A stretch of DNA of 64,000 bases from Metallosphaera tengchongensis. GTDB taxonomy: Archaea; Thermoproteota; Thermoprotei_A; Sulfolobales; Sulfolobaceae. Position numbers and translations under genes: made by a program. This document shows, piece after piece, positions 43,890-60,589 of this stretch (positions within the stretch are counted from its first letter, which is position 1; every line of letters starts with the position of its first letter). The notes beneath the pieces were generated by a model. It saw only the letters and a list, made by a program, of their open reading frames with translations. It ran no database searches and was not told where the DNA came from. Location of the stretch: positions 2,089,501-2,153,500 of the forward strand of contig NZ_CP049074.1 in the NCBI RefSeq assembly GCF_013343295.1. Reading direction: 5' to 3'.

Positions 43890-44130
43890 TATGGGGTTTG
43901 GGTTTCATAGGATCTCATACTCGATCTCAATCCTCAACCCTTGTCACGGGGGTCGAGCGGGTCTTCCTTCATCCTCCGCCCCAAGGGGTAACCCCTACCC
44001 ACCTAGATGGAATACCACCTAAGTGGGGAAACCCGCACATCTCGGGCTATGCAAGCCTTTCGGGATACATGCCCACATACGGCATTATGTAAAAATATTA
44101 GTGTGGAGTTATACAAACTTAATTCCCTTA
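43890..44130 (-). pseudogene. tnpB 3' remnant of IS607-type element
   Basis: In inverted orientation it matches the tail of the intact tnpB at 55860-56137: GGTTTGGGTTTCAT (element right end), CTCGACCCCCGTGACAAGG-like sequence, the PPKWGN region and GCATGTATCCCGAAAGG. The N-terminal part is absent. Degenerate. Confidence 0.6.
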
Positions 44131-44240
44131 CTGAAACTGCTCACCACGGCTCTTTTGTTGGAGTAAGTCGAACCCCCTTGGACAGACTTACCGTTCCCAT
44201 GTCTAATCAATACCGGAGCGTCTTGGGGTCACTCCTGTCT

Positions 44241-50341: not shown

Positions 50342-51539
50342 ATGAAGATAGGGATCAAGAGCATCGGCCCCATTAGAGAGGCAAATATCGACTTTCATGA
50401 TAAAGTTGTAATAGTTGGTGGGAACTCAACTGGTAAGACTTTTATCTCAACCTTAGTGTACTTTCTCGTAACTCTGCCAACTATGTTAGTTGGACCGCTA
50501 AAGTACAAGTTAGAACCCCCGGCCATTGAGGGAAACAAGGAGGTCTCCCTAGAAGTTCCAGTGAGTTTAAAGGAGTTAATTGAAGAGAACAAAGATATAA
50601 TATCTAAAATAACCAAGGAAGGGTTAAAGTCTGTATTTGGTGTAAACATTAAAGATTTAATAAGGTTTCAAGATAATGAAGGCGTCGTAGAGAACGATAA
50701 GATCAAGATTGTCTTGGCCGGGGACGACGTTGATGTTGAAACTAAAATAGATGAGACAGAGAACTTTGACGTCGCAGTAGTGAAGATCTCTACTGGCCTT
50801 CAGCCCTATAGCAGCACAAGCAGTCCAGAGGGTAAAATAGTGGTCATCACTGGGGAAAAAGTAAAGGAGTGCCTTGAAAACACATTAGCGTACCATTTCT
50901 TAGTGAAGTTCCTTATGGATCCCTCTTATTACCCTGTGGCATATTTAAGCACCGAAAGGATAGCCTCAGCGTTTTATTTACCTAACCTGAATAAGCTAAT
51001 TTTGCCCCCAGTTTCCGCAAGCTTAAGTAAACCCTTAATCGCTGATTTCTTAAAATATATAACTCCTGGCGTCAAGTTTGAGCTATTCGGTCATGAAGTG
51101 GAGGTAAACAAGGACTCCTTAATTAGGGTGTCTAAGGAGGGGAGAGGTTAACCCTTCTTTAGTGTCTACTGGAATATACCAATTCACACCAGTCGAGTTA
51201 GCTCTGAGAAACCCTATACTTAAGAGTGTCATAATAGAGGAACCTGAAATAAACTTACATGTCGACGCACAAATTGAAGTGGCAAAAAGGTTAGCTACAG
51301 AGAGCACTAAGAGGCTGGTTATAACTACCCATAGCGAGTGGATACCAATGTTCGTAGCTAAGAAAATGGTCGGCAGAACTGGAGGTTTAAGGATCTACGA
51401 GGTCGTCGACGGTGTGCTTGAAGAGAGAAAGGTAGATGAGGAAGGTTTTGTGGAGACCTTCAAGACGATCTTTCCAAAGGCAAATAAAGGAATGGAGGAG
51501 TTGCTACAGGAGGAGGGCAAGCTCAGTGAAATTAAATGA
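50342..51539 (+). pseudogene. AAA ATPase (OLD/ABC-type) with one frameshift
   Basis: Two adjacent frames make one ATPase of about 400 aa. The first (50342-51151) has Walker A GGNSTGKT near residue 28 after KIGIKSIGPIREANIDF, the start of OLD/RecF-like ATPases. The second (51162-51539, open from about 51145) has Walker B SVIIEEPEINLH and the H-loop TTHSEW. The junction is at GGAGGGGAGAGGTTAACC, where one base change would restore VSKEGRG to VNPSLVSTG. OLD-type ATPases act with TOPRIM or other nucleases. Could be a sequencing error in a G-run, so the gene may be functional. The downstream partner is truncated. Confidence 0.65.
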
Positions 51540-51657
51540 ATTTATGAGTATTGGGGATGGAGTCTTATGTATAAAATATGATAAGCTCTGTAGAGGGCAG
51601 AAAAAGAGCGTTTACGCCGTGATAAGCAGTTTCAGTGAGAGAATTAAGTTTACATAA
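51526..51657 (+). pseudogene. Truncated gene after AAA ATPase
   Basis: A reading from GTG 51526 overlaps the end of the ATPase: VKLNEFMSIGDGVLCIKYDK, LCRGQKKSVYAVISSFSERI, then a stop at 51655 coinciding with the start of an IS607-type remnant. It is probably the first 43 codons of the ATPase's partner gene, cut by the transposon piece. The identity of the partner cannot be told. Confidence 0.4.
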
Positions 51658-51895
51658 CTCCATATTGATACCTTACACGACAGAAGAGGTCTTACCCCAG
51701 ATGTGGGTATGTATCCCGAAAGGGAGTAAGATAACTTGAGATGTGCGGGTTCCCCCACTTAGGTGGTATACCGTCTAGGAGGGTCGGGGTTATCTTAATG
51801 GGGCGGAGGAGGAAGGAGAACCCGCTCGACCCCCGTGACAAGGGTTGAGGGTTGATATCAAATTATATGAGATCCGATGAGACCTAAACCCCAGG
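51658..51895 (+). pseudogene. tnpB 3' remnant of IS607-type element
   Basis: Matches the 3' part of the intact tnpB at 55860-56137: ACCCCAGATGTGGGTATGTA, GGTGGTATACCGTCTAGG and GATGAGACCTAAACCCC at the right end. Internal deletions and shifts. Confidence 0.6.
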
Positions 51896-51930
51896 AGCTT
51901 AGAGCTTTCGAAGTACATGAGTTTGACAAG

Positions 51931-52088
51931 AGGAGGACAAACCTTCCCTTTAGGGGGTGGAAAAAGTATTTTAAGTTTAAAACGCTCCCTGCAGATGAGG
52001 CTCTACACCTCTCCACTGCTTCTAAGAAAGTTCCGAATTGGTGGAACTAACGACCCGCAGAAGGGGATTCTCGTCCTTTAGGACTGAC
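51931..52088 (+). mobile_element. About 160-bp internally deleted IS605-type derivative
   Basis: Begins with a left-end type hairpin (GGAGGACAAACC, TTCCCTTTAGGGGGTGG, then AAAAAGTATTTTAAG, a TATA-like box) and ends with a partial right-end type hairpin (TCTCGTCC, TTTA, GGACTGACA). There is no tnpB between. Looks like a MITE-like deletion derivative. The right end is weak, so the extent is uncertain. Confidence 0.4.
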
Positions 52089-52103
52089 AAACCAGTAAGA
52101 AAT

Positions 52104-53363
52104 TTACACTAACTTGTCTTCGCCCAGCAACCACTTCCACATTGGTATAGCCTTAATCCCTTCTATCTCATCCTCATAGTCCCATGTTATTATTGTAGCG
52201 TTGTCAACCTTGAGCTCAGACTTAGCCTCAATGATTGCCTTGACTTCCCTATCCTCCACCTTATCTGTAGCATACGTCACTTGAATTAGAGCTATGGGAC
52301 TGAAGTTCTTAGCTACTACAAAATCCACCTCTCTCTTTCCCTTCCAGTAAAACACTTCTCTATACCCTCTCCTCAGAAGCTCTATGTATACTAAATTCTC
52401 CATTGCGTTGGATATTGAAAATTCGTAGCCTAAAGCCGTCGGATAACCGGTGTCAATTATGTATAATTTTTTCGGATTGGCTTTCCTCTTCCTCTCGCTT
52501 TTCTCAAACTCTTCTACAAAGAAGGAAAAGTAAGTCTCTTTAGCCCTATTGAAGAGCTCGATGACTGTCTCCTTCCCTATCTTAATCCCTAAGCTTCTCA
52601 TGTACTCATAGACCTTATTGATGGTCGTCGGTCTAGCGTAATTTGATATTAAATAGCTAGCAAAAAGTGAAGCAATATCAGCTTTAACTGTAGAGAAGTC
52701 CCTTACTATAATTGAATCAAAATAGGATTTCAACAGCCTTATCTTCTCGTTATTCTCATTCTCAAGAACTACAGCTGGATAGGAGCCGTAATACAGGTAC
52801 TCCCTTAGAAACGACAATATTTTGCCTCTTTCAAAGGTATATTCAATTAGCCTATTATACTCGAAACTCTTAAATCTTAAAAATTCCTTGAAGGAGAGCG
52901 GAAAAACTTCATAGTTTACGCTCCTCCCCCTCAACTCTTCGGCGATCCTTAAGGGAGTTAGTAGCGATGAAGAACCAGAGAGGAAGACTGTGGAACTAGT
53001 CCTTTTCCTAAACCAACTTCCATAGTTTTCAAGTTTTTGGACTTCATCTAGAAAAATATATCTGGGCTGTTTTCCGGTCAGTTCCACAAAAACAGTCAAA
53101 ATCTTATCTAAGTCCTCTACCTTAGAGCCCTTTAATCTATAGTCTTCAAAATCAACGTAAAGTATCTCGTCATGAGATGCTAGACCCCTCTTCATTATAT
53201 CTTGAATTGTCTGATATAAAGTGAATGTTTTACCGCTTCTTCTACCGCCAGTCACGGTTATTATGTAGTCTTTATCTAAAGGGAGTGAAACGTCTCTCCT
53301 TATGACGTTTGGGAGAGGTGAGGTGAGCCATTCCGCGATATAGCTCCTTAACCTTTCTTCCAC
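52104..53363 (-). CDS. Archaeal ATPase with DUF4143-type C-terminal domain
   Basis: A 419-aa protein. Walker A GGRRSGKTF and Walker B RYIFLDEVQKL are in the N-terminal AAA domain; SGSSS after it is sensor 1. The C-terminal domain has ELLRRGYREVFYWKGKREVD, FVVAK, the E..GKREVDF motif of DUF4143, related to the PD-(D/E)XK fold. These proteins are abundant and mobile in archaea; function unknown. The frame is open to a TTG at 53462. A TATA-like CTTATTAATAC (minus, about 53385-53395) lies 26 nt before GTG 53363 and inside the longer reading, which supports the shorter start. Adjacent to a similar ATPase disrupted by IS607. Confidence 0.8.
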   Translation of the reverse strand: MEERLRSYIAEWLTSPLPNVIRRDVSLPLDKDYIITVTGGRRSGKTFTLYQTIQDIMKRGLASHDEILYVDFEDYRLKGSKVEDLDKILTVFVELTGKQPRYIFLDEVQKLENYGSWFRKRTSSTVFLSGSSSLLTPLRIAEELRGRSVNYEVFPLSFKEFLRFKSFEYNRLIEYTFERGKILSFLREYLYYGSYPAVVLENENNEKIRLLKSYFDSIIVRDFSTVKADIASLFASYLISNYARPTTINKVYEYMRSLGIKIGKETVIELFNRAKETYFSFFVEEFEKSERKRKANPKKLYIIDTGYPTALGYEFSISNAMENLVYIELLRRGYREVFYWKGKREVDFVVAKNFSPIALIQVTYATDKVEDREVKAIIEAKSELKVDNATIITWDYEDEIEGIKAIPMWKWLLGEDKLV

Positions 53364-53693
53364 AACAATACAGTAGGAAGTTTGTATTAATAAGTCTGTT
53401 TCTGACCAGTTTAACGTTAAAACTGGTCTCTCATAGACCATATTTTTATATAAAAAGAACAATTAATATAAAATAATTTTATATCATGTTAAATAATTTT
53501 CATATATTGCAAAGATATGGCTCCCATGAGTGTACTCGACAAAGTTTGCATCCTTTGGTCGACTTATCCCTTGATAACTTTGTTTTGCTCTATCGTCGTG
53601 GGTTACTTCCCTTCTCATATAGTGACAAATTTTTCACGTTTAGCTTTCAAGCCCTGCTCATAGGCTTATATAAGGAAATTTTTAAATGGGAAT

Positions 53694-53960
53694 ATGATAG
53701 GGGAAATAGTCCAGAGAAAGGTAGATGAGAAGGGAAGAGTTTACACCCCTGAGTATAGGTCAAAAAGAGTGTACTTAGTTAACTTAGGCAATGGATATTT
53801 TATAACGGATAATGAGGAGTTAGCAGAGGCTGTGAGCGAAAGAGCATCAAGCTTCTTCAATGAGGAGTTCTTAAGGTTAGTTACTGAGCTGGACCTCGGT
53901 AATATTCATGAAAAAGCGGAGGAGGAGCTGTCTAGGAGGTTAATGAAAAGCCTAGGCTGA
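53694..53960 (+). CDS. AbrB-like DNA-binding protein / antitoxin
   Basis: An 88-aa protein. MIGEIVQRKVDEKGRVYTPE resembles the swapped-hairpin AbrB/MazE N-terminal domain (V-D-x-K-G-R-V-x-I-P), although the later positions are less typical; the C-terminal half is a charged helix (EEFLRLVTELDLGNIHEKAE). In archaea such proteins are often antitoxins for VapC, but no toxin gene follows. The start is supported by CTTATATAAG (53665-53674) 24 nt upstream. It lies between two ATPase genes, divergent from one. Confidence 0.65.
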   Translation: MIGEIVQRKVDEKGRVYTPEYRSKRVYLVNLGNGYFITDNEELAEAVSERASSFFNEEFLRLVTELDLGNIHEKAEEELSRRLMKSLG

Positions 53961-54263
53961 ATTAAATGGAGGAATAGTACTTCTTACACACAGATATTTT
54001 GGTATCTAAACAGTTCGTGAACATTAAGGAACCATTTGTACTAAGTTCAATCTCCGCTATTGAACTAACTTCTGACCCCGAGATTATTACCTCTACAAGG
54101 TCACTCTCTTGAAACCTTTTCCTCATGACCTCTAGGATCCTCGGAAAGGGCTGTCTGAGGTACCTTATCTTCTGGAACTCGTCCATAATCATTACAACGC
54201 CCTTGTCCTGCAGTTTCCGTTAACTCATAAAATTTATATTAGTTAATACTAACATACTATACA

Positions 54264-54848
54264 ATGCTGAGACCAAAGGAGGTATGCGAAAGACTGGGAA
54301 TATCCTACGCTACGCTGTGGAATTACGTCAAACAGGGTAAGATAAAGCCCATCATTCTAGAGAGCGGTAAATGGAGGTTCAGAGAAGAAGACGTAGAAAG
54401 ACTCATGGGGGTAGTAAAAAAGAAGAAAGTAGTCCTTTACGCTAGAGTATCCTCAGACACTCAGAAAGACGACCTAGCTAAACAGGTAGCTTATCTGCAG
54501 GGGAGGGTGGAGGAATACGACCTTACGATCACAGACATAGGTTCAGGGTTAAACATGAAAAGGAAGGGGTTCAAAAGACTACTGAAGATGATCCTCAACA
54601 ACGAGGTCTCTAAAGTCGTCGTTGCGTATAAGGACAGGCTAGTGAGGTTCGGCTTCGAAATACTGGAGGAAGTGTGTAGAACACACAACTGCGAGATAGA
54701 GGTGCTAGAGGAAGAGGATAAGGCACCAGAACAGGAGCTGGTTGAGGACTTAATCACTGTCCTTGTGTCCTTCAGCGGGAAACTGTACGGGATGAGGAGC
54801 CATAAGTACGAGAAGGTGAAGAAGTGTGTTGAAGAGCTTAAGGATTGA
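54264..54848 (+). CDS. tnpA: IS607-family serine recombinase (TnpA)
   Basis: A 194-aa protein. An N-terminal MerR-like helix-turn-helix (LRPKEVCERLGISYATLWNY, 2-21) is followed by a small serine-recombinase domain: VVLYARVSS with R61 and catalytic S63, then AYKDRLVRFGF with R125 and R128. This domain order is diagnostic of IS607 transposases, which integrate and excise through a circular intermediate. The upstream 45 bp contain AT-rich sequence TTTATATTAGTTAATAC that can serve as the promoter. It overlaps tnpB by 23 bp. It appears functional. A decayed copy is at 59639-59880. Confidence 0.92.
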   Translation: MLRPKEVCERLGISYATLWNYVKQGKIKPIILESGKWRFREEDVERLMGVVKKKKVVLYARVSSDTQKDDLAKQVAYLQGRVEEYDLTITDIGSGLNMKRKGFKRLLKMILNNEVSKVVVAYKDRLVRFGFEILEEVCRTHNCEIEVLEEEDKAPEQELVEDLITVLVSFSGKLYGMRSHKYEKVKKCVEELKD

Positions 54849-56124
54849 CAACTTCACGCCACCAGAGGAGTCAATCTACTTGACCTACGCCATAAAGAAC
54901 GAGAGGAGGGAAGAGACACTCCTCTTGATGACGGAGTACAAGAAACTGTTAGACAAGGCATTAGACTACTTGTGGAATAAGACAAGGATAGAAGTAAAGA
55001 GCACCACAGACAAAAGGGGAAGACATAACAAAAAGGTAAAAGTAACCCTGCCAAAAAAGAAAGAGGTATATAAGGAGTTTAGGGATCAGTTAGAAAAAGT
55101 GAACTTACTAGCTTCTCATTATGTTGACAAGGCTATAAACGATGCTTTTTCGATCTTGAAGTCGTGGAGGAAGAGGGTGTTAAAGGGTAGGGCATCCCTA
55201 AGAAAGCCTAGGGTGAAGAAACCTTATGTTAGGATAAAGTCTACGCTCAGGAAAGTTATTAATGAAGAGGTTAGGATAACTGTAAAACCTTACGAATACT
55301 TGACCTTTTCTTGGAGGAATACATGGTTCAAGGGCAGGGTTAAGGGTTTGGAGTTAGGCGAGCCAGTAATAAAGGATGATAAAGTGTATCTACCCTTCCG
55401 TTATAGAGTCCAACCACAGACCCCTTTAAACTTCTTGGCAATTGACTCAAACCTCTTCACTTTGGACGCATATGATGGCGAGAAGTTCGTGACTTTCTCG
55501 CTCAAACAGCTATACTCCCTGAAGTACGGTATGGCAAAGAAGAGAGGTAAGGTGCAGTCCTTCGCGTCAAAGCGTGGAAAGAAGGGAAAAGAGCTCTCGA
55601 GGAAGTACTCCCACCGCGAGAGGGATAGGGTCATGGACTACGTGCATAAGTTCGTAAACGTGTTGCTAGAGCTATACCCCTTTACCACCTTCGTGGTTGA
55701 GAGACTGGACAAACAGAACATGTTTAAGGACGCAAGCAACGCGTTGTCTAGGAAGGTCTCGAGGACTGTGTGGAGGACTATACACAACGTGTTAAAGTAT
55801 AAGGCTCCACTCCACGGGTCACGCGTGGTTGAGGTCAACCCATACCTCACCTCGAGGTCTTGCCCCAGATGTGGGCATGTATCCCGAAAGGTCGGCAAGA
55901 CCTTCACCTGTGAGAGGTGTGGGTTTACACTGGACAGACAGTTGAATGCATCCTTGAATATCTACCTGAGAATGTGCGGGTTATCCCATCTAGACGGTAT
56001 TCCGTCTAAGTGGGTCGGGGTTACCCCGCTAATGGGGCGGAGGAGGATGAAGGCTGGAAACCCGCTCGACTCCCGTGAAGCCCAAGGGTTGAGGGTTCAT
56101 ATCAAGTTATATGAGTTCCAATGA
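54826..56124 (+). CDS. tnpB: TnpB RNA-guided endonuclease of IS607-type element
   Basis: A 432-aa intact TnpB. The RuvC-like triad can be placed at D207 (FLAIDSNL), E292 (FVVERLD) and D370 (TLDRQLNASLNI), with the zinc finger C346, C349, C362 and C365 (CPRCG, CERCG) between the last two. The N-terminal wedge/REC part covers residues 1-200. TnpB is a nuclease guided by a transposon-end RNA, ancestral to Cas12. The guide RNA would be encoded in the 3' part of the gene and the right end, with the guide starting just after 56137. It overlaps tnpA by 23 bp; the first codons (ATG 54826) may be replaced by a later start. Confidence 0.92.
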   Translation: MLKSLRIDNFTPPEESIYLTYAIKNERREETLLLMTEYKKLLDKALDYLWNKTRIEVKSTTDKRGRHNKKVKVTLPKKKEVYKEFRDQLEKVNLLASHYVDKAINDAFSILKSWRKRVLKGRASLRKPRVKKPYVRIKSTLRKVINEEVRITVKPYEYLTFSWRNTWFKGRVKGLELGEPVIKDDKVYLPFRYRVQPQTPLNFLAIDSNLFTLDAYDGEKFVTFSLKQLYSLKYGMAKKRGKVQSFASKRGKKGKELSRKYSHRERDRVMDYVHKFVNVLLELYPFTTFVVERLDKQNMFKDASNALSRKVSRTVWRTIHNVLKYKAPLHGSRVVEVNPYLTSRSCPRCGHVSRKVGKTFTCERCGFTLDRQLNASLNIYLRMCGLSHLDGIPSKWVGVTPLMGRRRMKAGNPLDSREAQGLRVHIKLYEFQ

Positions 56125-56623
56125 AACCCAAACCCCCTTGTCCAAATCCTCAGCGATTCTTTGAGGTAAAAGCAATATATCGTCCAGTACTTCATTTGGC
56201 TTCAGTCTGTCCTGCTTGAATAATGAATATCTCTCTATGTAGATTTCTAGGTTATTCGACTTAACCCCTATACTCTTTATAGACCCGAGGAATTGGTTTA
56301 ACGACGATAAAACGTTTGTGAAGTTAAACTTAATCCTCAACTTTAAGGACTTCGCTAGGGAATCTAGGAGTAGTTTTCTGTTTAATTCATCTTCAAACTC
56401 CTCAATACTACTAATCCCTTCTATACTAAGCTTGGCTACTATATATTTATTACTAACTTTTAATTTTACAAAATTTAACAAAGAAGATTTACCAGTCCTT
56501 CTGGGGGAGGATTGCTACTGGCTGTCTATTCTCTATATAGTTTATTAGTGAGCTAACCTCCTTATCTCTATCAAAAAACTCTTCTTCCTCTGTTAATTCC
56601 CTACCAAAGATAAACTTAACCAT

Positions 56624-56999
56624 ACGATACCGTAGGGGTATCGGTACCGTAGAAAATAAACTTAGCTTATAAGAAGAAAAGGTCGCCATGAGGGATTATT
56701 GACCGCTAAGGGTGCGAAGAAAAGTTAGACGTAAAAAGAAGACCTTGCCCTGCAGGGTAACGCTTTTAACATTTGGTGCGCTCGCCTCTTCATGGAACTC
56801 CCTTCTGGTCAACTTCTCTATGAGGGACGGAGATCTGCCGCAATACCAAAAGGGTGTCGGTATTGTCACTGTTAGATTGTGCCATAGTGAGGCAAAACAG
56901 TGAAAATAAGAAAAGGGGTTAGTCAACTACCATGGTAGTTGACCAAGGAATCAGTGTTTCTACAAGGACTGTGAAGTGAGAGAGGGGTTTGGGTTTCAT
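56624..56999. other. No intact gene; holds a 22-bp perfect palindrome
   Basis: Upstream of the disrupted ATPase. Near 56630-56650 GATACC and GGTATC form a short inverted repeat that may be a regulatory site. A 63-codon plus frame (56712-56903) is unassigned. The palindrome at 56922-56943 is listed separately. Beyond it the sequence joins an IS607-type remnant. Confidence 0.4.
56922..56943. repeat. Perfect 22-bp palindrome
   Basis: The left arm GTCAACTACCA and the right arm TGGTAGTTGAC meet without a spacer. No other copy was seen in the window. A dyad of this length suggests a dimeric protein-binding site or the end of an unidentified element. Confidence 0.6.
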
Positions 57000-57235
57000 C
57001 GGGTCTCATATAACTTGATATAAACCCTCAACCCTTGTCACGGGAGTCGAGCGGGTTTTCCTTCATCCTCCTCCGCCCCAAGGGGTAACCCCGACCCACT
57101 TAGATGGGATGCCGTCTAAGTGGGGGAACCCGCACATCTTGAGCTCCATATGCAAGCCTTTCGGGATACATACCCACATCCGGCATTTTACAAAAATGTC
57201 AGTATGGAGTTATATAGTCTTAACACTCTCGATGA
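57000..57235 (-). pseudogene. tnpB 3' remnant of IS607-type element
   Basis: Inverted match to 55870-56137: GGGTTTGGGTTTCAT, CTCGACTCCCGTGACAAGG-like sequence, PSKWG region and GTATGTATCCCGAAAGG. It ends where a type-B tnpB remnant begins on the plus strand. The N-terminal two-thirds are absent. Confidence 0.65.
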
Positions 57236-57960
57236 AACTGCTTACTACGGCTAGGCTAGTAACGAAGGGCAGGAAGGTGTACCTGAAGGTCTCCCTCCTG
57301 AAGGTCTGGAGAGGACTGGAAGCTAAGGACGGCGTACCTGTAGACATAGACATGGCTTAACTCGTTGTTAATAAAGAAGACGAAAAGTACTTCAGGGTAC
57401 TCACAAGGCCTGAAGACGCCCACCACTACAAGTCACTGGCTGAATCACTACAGAGGTACGAAAAGAGGTGGAAGGAGGACAAGAGTGTCCTTTTCAGGAT
57501 AGAACCACTCAACAGGAAGGCTAGGGAAGTCTCAGAGGACTCCGCAAGACGGTGCGAAATTGGGTGTTAACACAGCTAACCCATTCGACGTTCCTGCCGT
57601 CCTCCTTGAATACCTCGACAACCTCATCAAAAATGTGAAGAAGATTCCCTCTGAGTCCAGGGACGAGCTTTATCTCATGCAGAACTATAGACTGCAGTAG
57701 GATTGAATGTCGGGCAAAGAAGCACGGGCTCAAGGCGGTCAACGTAGACCCTCACTACTCTACTTCATGTCCTAAGTGTGGGAAAGAGAAGAGGTTTCCC
57801 ATAGGTACTTCCGCCGTCCATGCAGTTATGAGGATGACCGTGACGTCACCGCAATCGTGGACTATTACGCGAGGGGTGCTCTGAGCCTCTCGACTGCTCT
57901 CACATGAGGGGTGTATCCCCGGACCGATGAGGTGGACCGCCATGGCATGGAGGAAGTCAA
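57236..57960 (+). pseudogene. tnpB: tnpB relic, type B, with right-end hairpin
   Basis: From LVTKGRKVYLKVSLLKVWRG, with AKDGVPVDIDMA and a stop, via [20 protein letters not shown], to KKIPSESRDELYLMQNY and a broken zinc finger (TSCPKCGKE). The hairpin at 57933-57960 (GGACCGCC, AT, GGCATGGAGG, AAGTCA) is the right end. Several shifts; N-terminal part replaced by an inverted IS607-type tail, showing recombination between relics. Confidence 0.65.
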
Positions 57961-58058
57961 TCACTAACGTATCCTCTTAAATAGCTGAAAACGTTTGGAA
58001 TAATCGCTACGTAATAGTTTATAACTTCTGGGGGAGAACATATATTCTGGGGGAGAAG

Positions 58059-59114
58059 TTGTTATTTGATGAAAGACCTAAAACGAGGAGACAGGAGCTG
58101 TTCGATAGGGATATAGAAATAGAGGGGATAAAGAGTAACGTAGATAGGCCTCTCCTAGTAATATCTGGAATCAGGAGAATAGGTAAGACGTCTACACTTT
58201 TAGTGGCGTTAAACGAGCTAGGGAGAGATTACGTATTAATTGACTGCAGAAAGCTAAAGGAGAATTACGGCAGACAGGACCTGTATAATCTCTTCTCAAG
58301 TAGCTTTTCCACAGTTGTGGATAAGGTAAAGGGCGTACTCTCAGGGGTTAGAGGAGTGAGCATATTAGGAAACTCAATCGAATTTAAGTGGAAAGGTAGG
58401 GACTCAGTCTCCCTCGCTGACCTGTTTGACCATTTAAACGGGAAAAGACTAATTATAGCGATGGATGAGACGCAAAAGCTGAGGGGGCCATTATCGAAGG
58501 AGGTGAGGGAGGCAATAGCCCACGCATATGATTATGACAGAAACTTGACCTTTATTTTGACAGGTTCAGAAGTTGGATTACTCTACGATTTTCTGGGCGT
58601 AGAAGATAGAGAGTCTCCACTTTACGGAAGGTACTACTATCAGATAACTCTTGACAGGTTTGAGAAGGAGAGAGCAACTGAGTTCTTAAGGAAAGGTTTC
58701 GACGAAATATCTGCGAAAGTCAGCGACGAGGAAACAGAGAAACTGGTGGAGTTCTTTGACGGAATACCAGGTTGGCTCACGTTTGGGGCTAACAGGTTTT
58801 TAGAGGGGAGAAAGATTGAAGAAGTGAGGGAGATTGCAATAGATGTAGCGTTAAACGAGATAGAGAACTTAATAGAGACTAAGAGAAGGGTGTCAGAGAT
58901 AGTAGGTAGAAGATATAAAAACGCGTTGAAGTGCTTGGCGTTAGGGGAGAACAGTTGGAGCAAACTGTCCAACTGTTTGCAGAGAGCTGAAGGAAGCACT
59001 ATGTCCAGTAGCGTTCTGGAAAACATAATAACTAACCTAGAGAAGAGTAGTATAATAAAGGACTACGAATTCTTAGACCCAATATACGGTGAGGCAAGCA
59101 AAAGATTAAGTTAA
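58059..59114 (+). CDS. Archaeal STAND-type ATPase
   Basis: A 351-aa protein of the archaeal ATPase family. FDRDIEIEGIKSNVDRPLLV leads to Walker A SGIRRIGKTSTLL (about residues 36-48), KRLIIAMDETQKL is Walker B and FILTGSEVG sensor 1, followed by a winged-helix-like C-terminal part (KNALKCLALGENSWSKL). These NTPases are proposed signal-transducing or toxin-linked switches; target unknown. The TTG start at 58059 is preceded by GGGGGAG, a strong Shine-Dalgarno site, and the TATA-like GTTTATAAC at 58017-58025, so this gene likely has a short leader. A GGGGGAGAA motif is doubled just upstream (58029 and 58047). Confidence 0.8.
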   Translation: MLFDERPKTRRQELFDRDIEIEGIKSNVDRPLLVISGIRRIGKTSTLLVALNELGRDYVLIDCRKLKENYGRQDLYNLFSSSFSTVVDKVKGVLSGVRGVSILGNSIEFKWKGRDSVSLADLFDHLNGKRLIIAMDETQKLRGPLSKEVREAIAHAYDYDRNLTFILTGSEVGLLYDFLGVEDRESPLYGRYYYQITLDRFEKERATEFLRKGFDEISAKVSDEETEKLVEFFDGIPGWLTFGANRFLEGRKIEEVREIAIDVALNEIENLIETKRRVSEIVGRRYKNALKCLALGENSWSKLSNCLQRAEGSTMSSSVLENIITNLEKSSIIKDYEFLDPIYGEASKRLS

Positions 59115-59181
59115 GTATGAAACTGACCTCTACCAAAAAAAGGAAGGTTTCCGTTTCTTCTGTTACCTACAAAGTGATGAA

Positions 59182-59213
59182 ATCCTCGCCCTCTAGGTTG
59201 GGGAGGAGGTCAG
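59182..59213 (+). repeat. Solo palindromic unit between convergent genes
   Basis: Order: AATCCTCGCCC, TCTAGG, TTGGGGAGG, AGGTCAG. It lies between the ends of the ATPase gene (plus) and the 117-aa gene (minus), without tnpB sequence. It could also function as a terminator hairpin. Confidence 0.6.
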
Positions 59214-59224
59214 TTCTCCTAGCC

Positions 59225-59578
59225 TTAAAAGTCTGCGTTGCTTCCATCACAATAATCTATCAATGTAGCCTCCTTCGACGTAGGGAACATCGTAATCACC
59301 TTCTTAGAGTTTCCTTCTACTTTAAAGACAATAACCATATACAACCCTTCAATTATTCTTTCACAATAAGAGTGTTGTACATCGTTATTCTCCACTCTAA
59401 GCTCCTTAGTGTATACAATTTGAGGTGAATTGCAAAAGTTATCTAGTATTCTTCTTATATGAGATATAATTTCTATCCCAAATCTTCTAGACTTCCTCCC
59501 TTTCCCTAAGCCTCTCATTAGCGTGACGTGTGAAAGTGCAATAGTTAATAGAGAGTCACCGTGCTTACGCTCACACAA
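59225..59578 (-). CDS. Unknown 117-aa protein, possible BECR-fold RNase-like
   Basis: Small basic protein. TIALSHVTLMRGLGKGRKSR supplies a His followed by Arg/Lys-rich residues, EIISHIRRILDNFC a helix, and QHSYCERIIEGLYMVIVFKV, then KKVITMFPTSKE a pair of strands ending in T-M-F-P. This layout is like that of the protein at 44241-44642 and of BECR-type small ribonucleases (H-x-x-R, R on strands, T-x-Y-P end). The similarity is by eye and low. The start is a TTG at 59578 and is uncertain; the ATG near 59518 (MRGLGKGRK) would lose the His. It is convergent with the ATPase gene. Confidence 0.4.
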   Translation of the reverse strand: MCERKHGDSLLTIALSHVTLMRGLGKGRKSRRFGIEIISHIRRILDNFCNSPQIVYTKELRVENNDVQHSYCERIIEGLYMVIVFKVEGNSKKVITMFPTSKEATLIDYCDGSNADF

Positions 59579-59638
59579 GGAGCACCGAAAACGTCCCTAT
59601 AGGTTGGATATATGGCTATGTTAGTTATGCCGTTGTCA

Positions 59639-59880
59639 GCAGTTTCCGTTAACTTGTAAAATTATATAATTCCATATCAATATCTTACACAGTGCTGAGA
59701 GTAAAGGGAGTGTGCGAGGGACTAGGAATGTCCTACACTACTCTTGGACTTACGTCAAACAGGGTAAGGTTAAGCCTGTCGTCCTGGAGAGAGGTAAATG
59801 AGGTTTAGGGAGGAGGACGTGGAGAGGTTAGTGGGCGTGGTGAAGAAGAGGGAGGTTCCTATTTGCGAGTTCTGCACCTC
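59639..59880 (+). pseudogene. tnpA: IS607-type tnpA 5' remnant with left end
   Basis: Begins GCAGTTTCCGTTAAC as in the intact element at 54210, then VKGVCEGLGMSYTTL-like and WRFREEDVERLVGVVKKREV, i.e. the HTH of TnpA, with a frameshift near 59745 and a stop. The recombinase domain is absent and the sequence joins a type-A tnpB tail. Confidence 0.7.
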
Positions 59881-60124
59881 TAGTCTCTGAGCTTTCCATG
59901 ACGTTCCCGTTGAAAGGGAGCCTAGGGAGTTGCTAACTGCCCTCTAGGTCAAAGCCTCCACAGTGACGTTAATGGAGATTTAAACGTAAAGAAATTAGGG
60001 ATAAAGAGGACTGTAACCCTATTAAAGAAGCTCTCTTCCTCGTAACGACTAACGGAGTAACTCCGGCGAAGGGGAGTAACACCTTAGACTTAGCGGAACC
60101 CTTTAGGGCGGGGAGGGGGTCAGT
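59881..60124 (+). pseudogene. tnpB type-A tail with right-end hairpin
   Basis: Corresponds to 8070-8303: GTTGAAAGGGAGCCTAGGG, the zinc-finger tail region, then GGGGAGTAACACCTTAGACT and the hairpin at 60096-60124 (CGGAACCCTTTAGGGCGGGG, AGGGGGTCAG). Frameshifted throughout. Fused to an IS607-type tnpA remnant. Confidence 0.65.
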
Positions 60125-60232
60125 CACTACGAGAAGTAGTTAACACTGTTATCGTCCGAACCCTAGACGACGTTCCTCTCTACCTAAAAAGACGAGTAGT
60201 AAGGGGCAAGCACCTCACGCTCCTAAAAAAGT

Positions 60233-60589
60233 TCAATGGTGGTGATGTTCTCCGTGTGTGGGCTTGTCTGTCTCCTTCAGCTTCCCTTCCACCAGCATCC
60301 TTACCGCTTCTTCCGCACTGGTGTTAGGCTCCGCTAAGAACACCTTAGCCTTCCCTTGAAGGAACCTTATCCCCGGTGGGCCTATCTCCACCAAGATGAA
60401 GGTCTTAGCCCCCCTCTCCAGGGCTGACTTTAGCATGTGCACCCCTCTAGCGTAGTTAGCTGTCAACGCTGGGTTATCGTACTCCTCCACCAACTTAGCC
60501 TCCATACCCTCTACCTCGTATATCCTGACCTTCTCTCCTTCTCCCGGCCCATCGACGAGGCCGTTAGTCACAGGTACTGCTACCTTCAT
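60233..60589 (-). CDS. NifX/NifB-like (dinitrogenase iron-molybdenum cofactor family) protein
   Basis: A 118-aa protein of the Fe-Mo cofactor-binding family. MKVAVPVTNGLVDGPGEGEK is the typical start, and GAKTFILVEIGPPGIRFLQG, AKVFLAE, then EEAVRMLVEGKL the usual core and helix. It ends in GEHHHH, a possible metal-binding tail. Stand-alone members in non-nitrogen-fixing archaea are thought to handle metal clusters or metals. The ATG overlaps the stop codon of the PadR-type regulator gene by 4 bp, so the pair is an operon under that regulator. GC-rich. No other nif gene is near. Confidence 0.75.
   Translation of the reverse strand: MKVAVPVTNGLVDGPGEGEKVRIYEVEGMEAKLVEEYDNPALTANYARGVHMLKSALERGAKTFILVEIGPPGIRFLQGKAKVFLAEPNTSAEEAVRMLVEGKLKETDKPTHGEHHHH

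What the first reader, a model, noticed from the sequence alone, without database searches (positions are those of the whole stretch)
53962..56623. IS607-type element splits an ATPase at Walker B with a 9-bp flanking repeat
CCCTTGTCC occurs at 54200-54208 and 56135-56143. Removing the element and one copy restores DKG-VVMIMDEFQK without a gap. IS607-family serine recombinases are generally reported to insert without a target duplication, so a 9-bp repeat is unexpected. It may be a chance match between target and element end, or a real duplication.
Basis: partly seen in the sequence, partly recalled or inferred. Interest (0 to 1): 0.55.

Follow-up and report, generated by a model that had tools for sequence, protein, structure and literature searches.

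The report
Jumping gene with coincidental flanking repeat
A common kind of archaeal jumping gene sits in an already broken ATPase gene, and the short repeat on either side of it is mostly the jumping gene's own end resembling the place it landed, rather than a true copied target, with one small unexplained oddity left over.

Summary
In detail: CCCTTGTCC lies at 54200-54208 and 56135-56143, and joining the flanks with one copy restores DKG-VVMIMDEFQK. The element is an IS607-family insertion (TnpA 54264-54848, TnpB 54826-56124), probably in a Sulfolobaceae genome. The repeat is not an ordinary target-site duplication. In 61 curated left-end/right-end pairs of the family (this copy included), left ends typically read G|CC GTTGTC A[A/G]CAGTTTC and right ends CC[A/G]AACCCC|. 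Beyond the shared CC exchange dinucleotide, tip and right flank agree over 0 nt in 52, 1 in 4, 2 in 3, 3 in 1, and 7 only in this copy. So the left copy is best read as CC plus the element's own tip (TTGTC), the right copy as CC plus target DNA. Relatives of the ATPase in six loci run through the site without a gap there. A second insertion has gapless empty sites in four relatives. What remains odd is that this left tip departs from its family just where the changes make it match its own flank. Chance plus drift fits; repair that copied flank DNA into the tip is not excluded. Ordinary overall; interest 0.2.

The parts
54199..54201 (+). Left target base G followed by the CC exchange dinucleotide (GG on the other strand)
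   Evidence: G precedes the dinucleotide in 60 of 61 curated insertions; first C in 61, second C in 59 of 61
54202..54209 (+). Atypical left tip CTTGTCCT; usual family tip here is GTTGTCA
   Evidence: C at first tip position in 1 of 61; spacing from CC to CAGTTTC is 9 nt here, 8 nt in 58 of 61
54210..54263 (+). Rest of left end (GCAGTTTCCGTTAACTC...) up to tnpA
   Evidence: conserved in relatives
54264..54848 (+). tnpA, IS607-type serine transposase, 194 aa
   Evidence: Pfam Resolvase E 9.5e-21, HTH_17 2.8e-13, MerR 2.9e-7
54826..56124 (+). tnpB, RNA-guided nuclease family, 432 aa
   Evidence: Pfam Cas12f1-like_TNB 4e-21, OrfB_IS605 4.5e-13
55972..56136 (+). Right end, putative guide-RNA (reRNA) scaffold; ends AAACCCC
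   Evidence: matched at many places in the own genome, most ending at the same base; covarying helices on a chosen set
56135..56136 (+). Right CC exchange dinucleotide
   Evidence: right ends of relatives end CC[A/G]AACCCC and then diverge
56137..56143 (+). CTTGTCC of the right copy: read as target DNA (Asp-Lys codons of the ATPase)
   Evidence: restored frame; six relatives have no gap at the site, but none carries CTTGTCC itself; the closest reads TTTGTTT
53962..54208 (-). Downstream remnant of the ATPase pseudogene (matches to residue 214 of 363), with Walker B
56144..56623 (-). Upstream part of the ATPase pseudogene, with a frameshift at Walker A

Best explanation
An IS607-family element inserted by its serine transposase at a GCC target (exchange over the 2-bp CC, GG on the other strand) inside an ATPase gene, duplicating nothing beyond that shared dinucleotide. 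The left copy of CCCTTGTCC is CC plus the element's own left tip, which in this family typically reads GTTGTC; the right copy is CC plus target codons. The target happened to carry TTGTC in register, and this copy's tip has drifted at the neighbouring positions (G to C; A to CT), which lengthened the match to 7 nt. Shown: the family ends, the near-absence of repeats in the other insertions, the gapless empty sites. Inferred: the circular route of transposition, and that the tip changes were drift.
For: 61 curated pairs: agreement beyond CC is 0/1/2/3 nt in 52/4/3/1 and 7 only here; no leftward extension in any. Typical left end G CC GTTGTC A[AG]CAGTTTC in own genome and relatives. Related left ends L024, L046 and L130 (a G010 contig) read GCCGTTGTCAGCAGTTTC; the two full-length 78% copies read GCC-TTGTCAG (L002) and GCCGTTGTCAA (L003). 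These two copies, at 2029007 and 1334299, restore open frames with exactly one CC; the first has gapless empty sites in 4 of the 5 other genus genomes. Relatives of the ATPase align through the site without a gap there in 6 loci. Published IS607 exchange at GG without duplication (PMC6188088, passages; GG overlap dinucleotide in PMC4058570, passages).
Against: The match is an outlier: next best is 3 nt. In 20000 permutations of flanks a maximum of 7 came up 344 times, about the 1 in 61 rate at which this tip meets its own flank again; no other of the 61 flanks reads CTTGTCC. The tip's departures (C at tip position 1, 1 of 61; C at position 7, 1 of 61; one base longer) go towards its own flank. 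None of the six ATPase relatives carries CTTGTCC at the site, so that the target had it before insertion rests on the reading frame. No sibling of the same lineage with an unchanged tip was found; the closest copies that include a left end are 82% identical over 279 bases (G010) and 78% over the whole length.
Confidence: 0.7

Rival explanations
1. The left tip was overwritten with target DNA during repair. After excision or TnpB cutting of the empty site, the broken left end kept a few bases of the right-hand target (CTTGTCC) and was rejoined to the left end at (T)GCAG, perhaps helped by the TTGTC shared by tip and target. The 7 extra bases would then be a genuine short copy of target DNA, made by repair and not by the transposase.
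For: The departures of this tip from its family move it towards its own flank; spacing to CAGTTTC is 9 nt against 8 in 58 of 61 pairs, and two other pairs (L041, L043) also have abnormal spacing. TnpB matches its Pfam domains, and its expected guide would begin with this same flank (inference).
Against: None of the other 60 pairs shows it; identities between tips and own flanks without this copy are 83 of 360 against 89.8 expected by permutation. The two other abnormal tips do not match their flanks beyond 1 nt. No repair product or intermediate was seen.
Confidence: 0.22
2. A true target-site duplication of 9 bp made at insertion.
For: Two perfect copies flank the element and removal of one restores the frame.
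Against: It would require that the element lost its usual tip; no other pair of 61 repeats more than 3 nt beyond CC; IS607 exchange is reported over 2 bp without duplication (PMC6188088, PMC4058570, passages).
Confidence: 0.04
3. Exchange took place inside TTGTC instead of at CC, so that part of the right copy is the element's tip.
For: The observed junctions can be written that way, and no ATPase relative carries CTTGTCC to show otherwise.
Against: The other curated pairs place the exchange at the CC position (CC in 59 of 61, CT in 2).
Confidence: 0.04

Closest known systems
ISSis5 (IS607 family) on Sulfolobus islandicus plasmid pYN01, NC_012624.1
   Same: Same two genes in the same order, 71.0% DNA identity over 96% of the query; left end CCGTCGTCAACAGTTTCC, right end CCCAAACCCC (L100, taken to be the same record because the match coordinates agree)
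   Different: Typical left tip; no agreement of tip and flank beyond CC
IS607 and ISC1926 as studied in PMC6188088 (passages read)
   Same: Serine transposase with N-terminal DNA-binding domain, GG exchange dinucleotide, no target duplication
   Different: This family has G before CC in 60 of 61; this copy carries an extra 7-nt match
IS607-derived MITEs of the same genome
   Same: Same left and right ends and mostly G|CC targets
   Different: 257-306 bp, no genes; keep the right-end sequence

Membership tests
IS607 family | tnpA: serine recombinase catalytic domain with N-terminal MerR-like/HTH domain | tested here: met
   Pfam Resolvase at residues 56-188, HTH_17 at 1-48
IS607 family | tnpB (OrfB) downstream | tested here: met
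   Pfam OrfB_IS605 and Cas12f1-like_TNB; start overlaps tnpA
IS607 family | Ends and target share a GG/CC dinucleotide | tested here: met
   CC at 54200-54201 and 56135-56136; CC at the left junction in 59 of 61
IS607 family | No target-site duplication beyond the dinucleotide | tested here: inconclusive
   Met as a family property: 60 of 61 pairs agree over at most 3 nt; this copy agrees over 7 nt, with the left copy lying at the place of the element's tip
IS607 family | Transposition through an excised circle | not testable with these tools
   no reads or PCR data
Elements with fixed-length target duplication (DDE transposases) | Regular duplication of target at each insertion | tested here: not met
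   0 nt beyond CC in 52 of 61 pairs; gapless empty sites of a second insertion in 4 relatives

The most novel reading that the evidence does not exclude
The left tip of this element was rewritten with target DNA by repair of a break at the insertion site, most likely a TnpB cut of the emptied site, leaving a footprint that imitates a target-site duplication; RNA-guided maintenance of IS607 elements would then slowly edit their ends towards their flanks.
Probability: 0.15. Interest if true: 0.45.

Novelty: new member of a known kind. Interest (0 to 1): 0.2.

Why it matters
It examines a possible exception to the rule that IS607 elements leave no target duplication: 60 of 61 curated insertions obey the rule to within 3 nt, and this exception is best read as overlap between tip and target. 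If the tip was really rewritten by repair, it would be a visible scar of TnpB-directed repair, which could be looked for in resequenced strains.

Tried and rejected
A 9-bp duplication as part of the mechanism was rejected on 61 pairs and on the gapless empty sites of a second insertion. General target preference for tip-like sequence was rejected: tip/flank identities in the other 60 pairs are not above permutation (83 of 360 against 89.8). Sibling copies of the same lineage were sought in the own genome, 6 genus genomes, 31 family genomes (at most 10 candidates scored per genome and the list was cut), plasmids, genome contigs by TnpB and viral contigs by TnpA (none): no copy with a left end closer than 82%. 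The exact left-end variant was sought in 214 genomes of the order with one mismatch allowed: 13 genomes hit, the own genome included, and only the window's own site is exact; the reversed control pattern hit 5 genomes, so the one-mismatch hits look like chance. Exact hits in 45 viral stretches come from a pattern too short for so large a collection; among the loci BLAST found left-end context only in the window's own. Rfam gave nothing at gathering level in 51500-60500; two sub-threshold matches there are probably chance.

How pairs were chosen: the script paired 76 left-end/right-end candidates. I kept those whose left end fits the motif and whose right end has at most one mismatch, plus one two-mismatch pair (L029 at 510) by hand; 15 were dropped, all with two right-end mismatches. 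Most look like chance pairings, but L087 has a good left end. 61 remain, this copy included. Many are not independent as elements (for example several copies in G014), although their flanks differ. Copies with a diverged end are not among the 61: L003 and L046 were looked at by eye (L003: tip GTTGTC, flank TTCTAC; L046: right end altered). The count of GCC sites (3814, of which 15 are followed by NTTGTC and 2 by CTTGTCC) was made on overlapping loci and includes the element's own left ends, so it is only an upper bound.

This weakens the evidence that the target carried CTTGTCC before insertion; that now rests on the reading frame. I left the odds as they were because the argument rests on the 61 pairs.

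Right-end RNA: RNAalifold alone did not find the hairpins; I drew them by hand and counted, so the test leans towards the drawn structure. I gave that alignment 27 of the 35 right ends listed; the 8 left out include four (L029 at 622, L039 and both of L041) that lack most of one hairpin arm, so the omission favours the structure.

Full report
What is there. The window is part of a single-contig genome of 2.18 Mb. By TnpB the named relatives are Metallosphaera yellowstonensis and a Sulfolobales archaeon, and by DNA a Sulfolobus islandicus plasmid; I infer a Sulfolobaceae archaeon, perhaps Metallosphaera, but no tool named the genome. The repeat CCCTTGTCC is at 54200-54208 and 56135-56143 and nowhere else in the window. 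Between the copies lies an IS607-family element with tnpA (54264-54848) and tnpB (54826-56124). The exchange dinucleotides are 54200-54201 and 56135-56136, so the element with both is 1937 bp.

What the ends look like in relatives. The own genome holds 55 BLAST matches to the element, two nearly full-length at 78% identity and many short right ends. In a genus search 4 of 6 genomes, and in a family search 23 of 31, have matches (both counts include the own genome). Left ends typically read G-CC-GTTGTC-A[A/G]CAGTTTC with variation in the tip; right ends read CC[A/G]AACCCC and then diverge. From 76 script-made pairs, 61 were kept. In these, G precedes the dinucleotide in 60, the first tip base is G in 54 (C only in this copy), the second is T in all 61, and the spacing from CC to CAGTTTC is 8 nt in 58.

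Is anything duplicated? Counting how far tip and right flank agree beyond CC gives 0 nt in 52 pairs, 1 in 4, 2 in 3, 3 in 1, and 7 in this copy; no pair agrees to the left of CC. The full copy at 2029007 restores an open frame with one CC and aligns without gaps to empty sites in 4 of the 5 other genus genomes (0 gaps over 254-264 bases each); the fifth, G004, gave only a shorter, weaker match. The full copy at 1334299 restores an open frame with one CC as well. This agrees with the published exchange at GG without duplication (PMC6188088 and PMC4058570, passages).

The target. Relatives of the ATPase run through the site without a gap there in six loci of other genomes, 62-83% identical in protein. 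The closest, G010, 82-83% identical, reads CTTTTGTTT where the window has CCCTTGTCC; the other five differ more, and none carries CTTGTCC. That the right copy is target DNA therefore rests on the restored reading frame and on the position of the right end in the other insertions. The window's ATPase also has a frameshift at Walker A and no match beyond residue 214 of 363; whether this came before the insertion is unknown.

Why the repeat is 9 long. Two bases are the CC shared by nearly every member. Five more (TTGTC) are the family's usual tip meeting a target that has the same five letters. The last two (the C on either side of TTGTC) exist only because this tip differs from the family there. 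Related left ends L024, L046 and L130 read GTTGTCAG; the two full 78% copies read TTGTCAG (L002) and GTTGTCAA (L003). So the tip of this lineage probably changed from about GTTGTCAG to CTTGTCCTG. Changes in such a tip are not rare in a family 20-30% diverged, but that they go towards the flank is unexplained. I judge drift plus chance at 0.7 and repair-made rewriting at 0.22.

Mechanism. Inferred from the family: TnpA excises a circle joined at CC and inserts it at a GCC target; TnpB with a guide taken from the right flank would cut emptied sites that keep the left GCC. IS607 TnpBs of bacteria are reported as RNA-guided nucleases with AG-rich motifs next to the left end (PMC11061315, passages); the G before CC seen here in 60 of 61 could be such a motif or a transposase preference. 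This was not tested.

In passing. Of the 24 own-genome pairs, 22 are short elements without tnpA and tnpB, 257-306 bp, with the same ends; three lie in this window. They keep the right-end sequence and, in many, a piece of the tnpB zinc-finger region. A hand-drawn three-helix structure is paired in 90.0% of 530 cells over 27 right ends, with 18 doubly changed cells against 4.8 in shuffles and at most 9 when slid. These 27 are a chosen part of 35, and RNAalifold alone gave a different, weak structure. This fits a kept guide-RNA scaffold but does not prove one. Three literature searches did not show archaeal IS607 MITEs with guide RNAs (listings only), which is weak evidence that they are undescribed. 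A S. islandicus genome paper reports only two MITE classes there, SMN1 and SM3A, tied to other transposases (PMC3718332, passages).

Noticed in passing
43893-44149 (-), 51617-51892 (+), 56984-57250 (-), and other places in the genome: Short IS607-derived elements without tnpA and tnpB (22 of 24 curated own-genome pairs) that keep both ends and a right-end sequence with covarying helices on a chosen set; each may supply a guide RNA for a TnpB acting in trans.
   Followed up: partly
53962-56623: The ATPase is a pseudogene apart from the insertion: frameshift at Walker A near 56508 and no match beyond residue 214 of 363 of a relative with an open frame.
   Followed up: partly
59639-59849: A left-end fragment of a related IS607 element, 77% identical, with the usual GCCGTTGTCAGCAG tip.
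   Followed up: no
L048, about 1410-1441: In a related genome (G005) a copy sits just after what looks by eye like the 3' end of a tRNA gene; ARAGORN finds no tRNA in this locus, so it may be a fragment, an intron-bearing gene or a misreading.
   Followed up: partly
58059-59114: A second, distantly related ATPase gene (about 25% identical to the relative's ATPase) lies next to the broken one.
   Followed up: no
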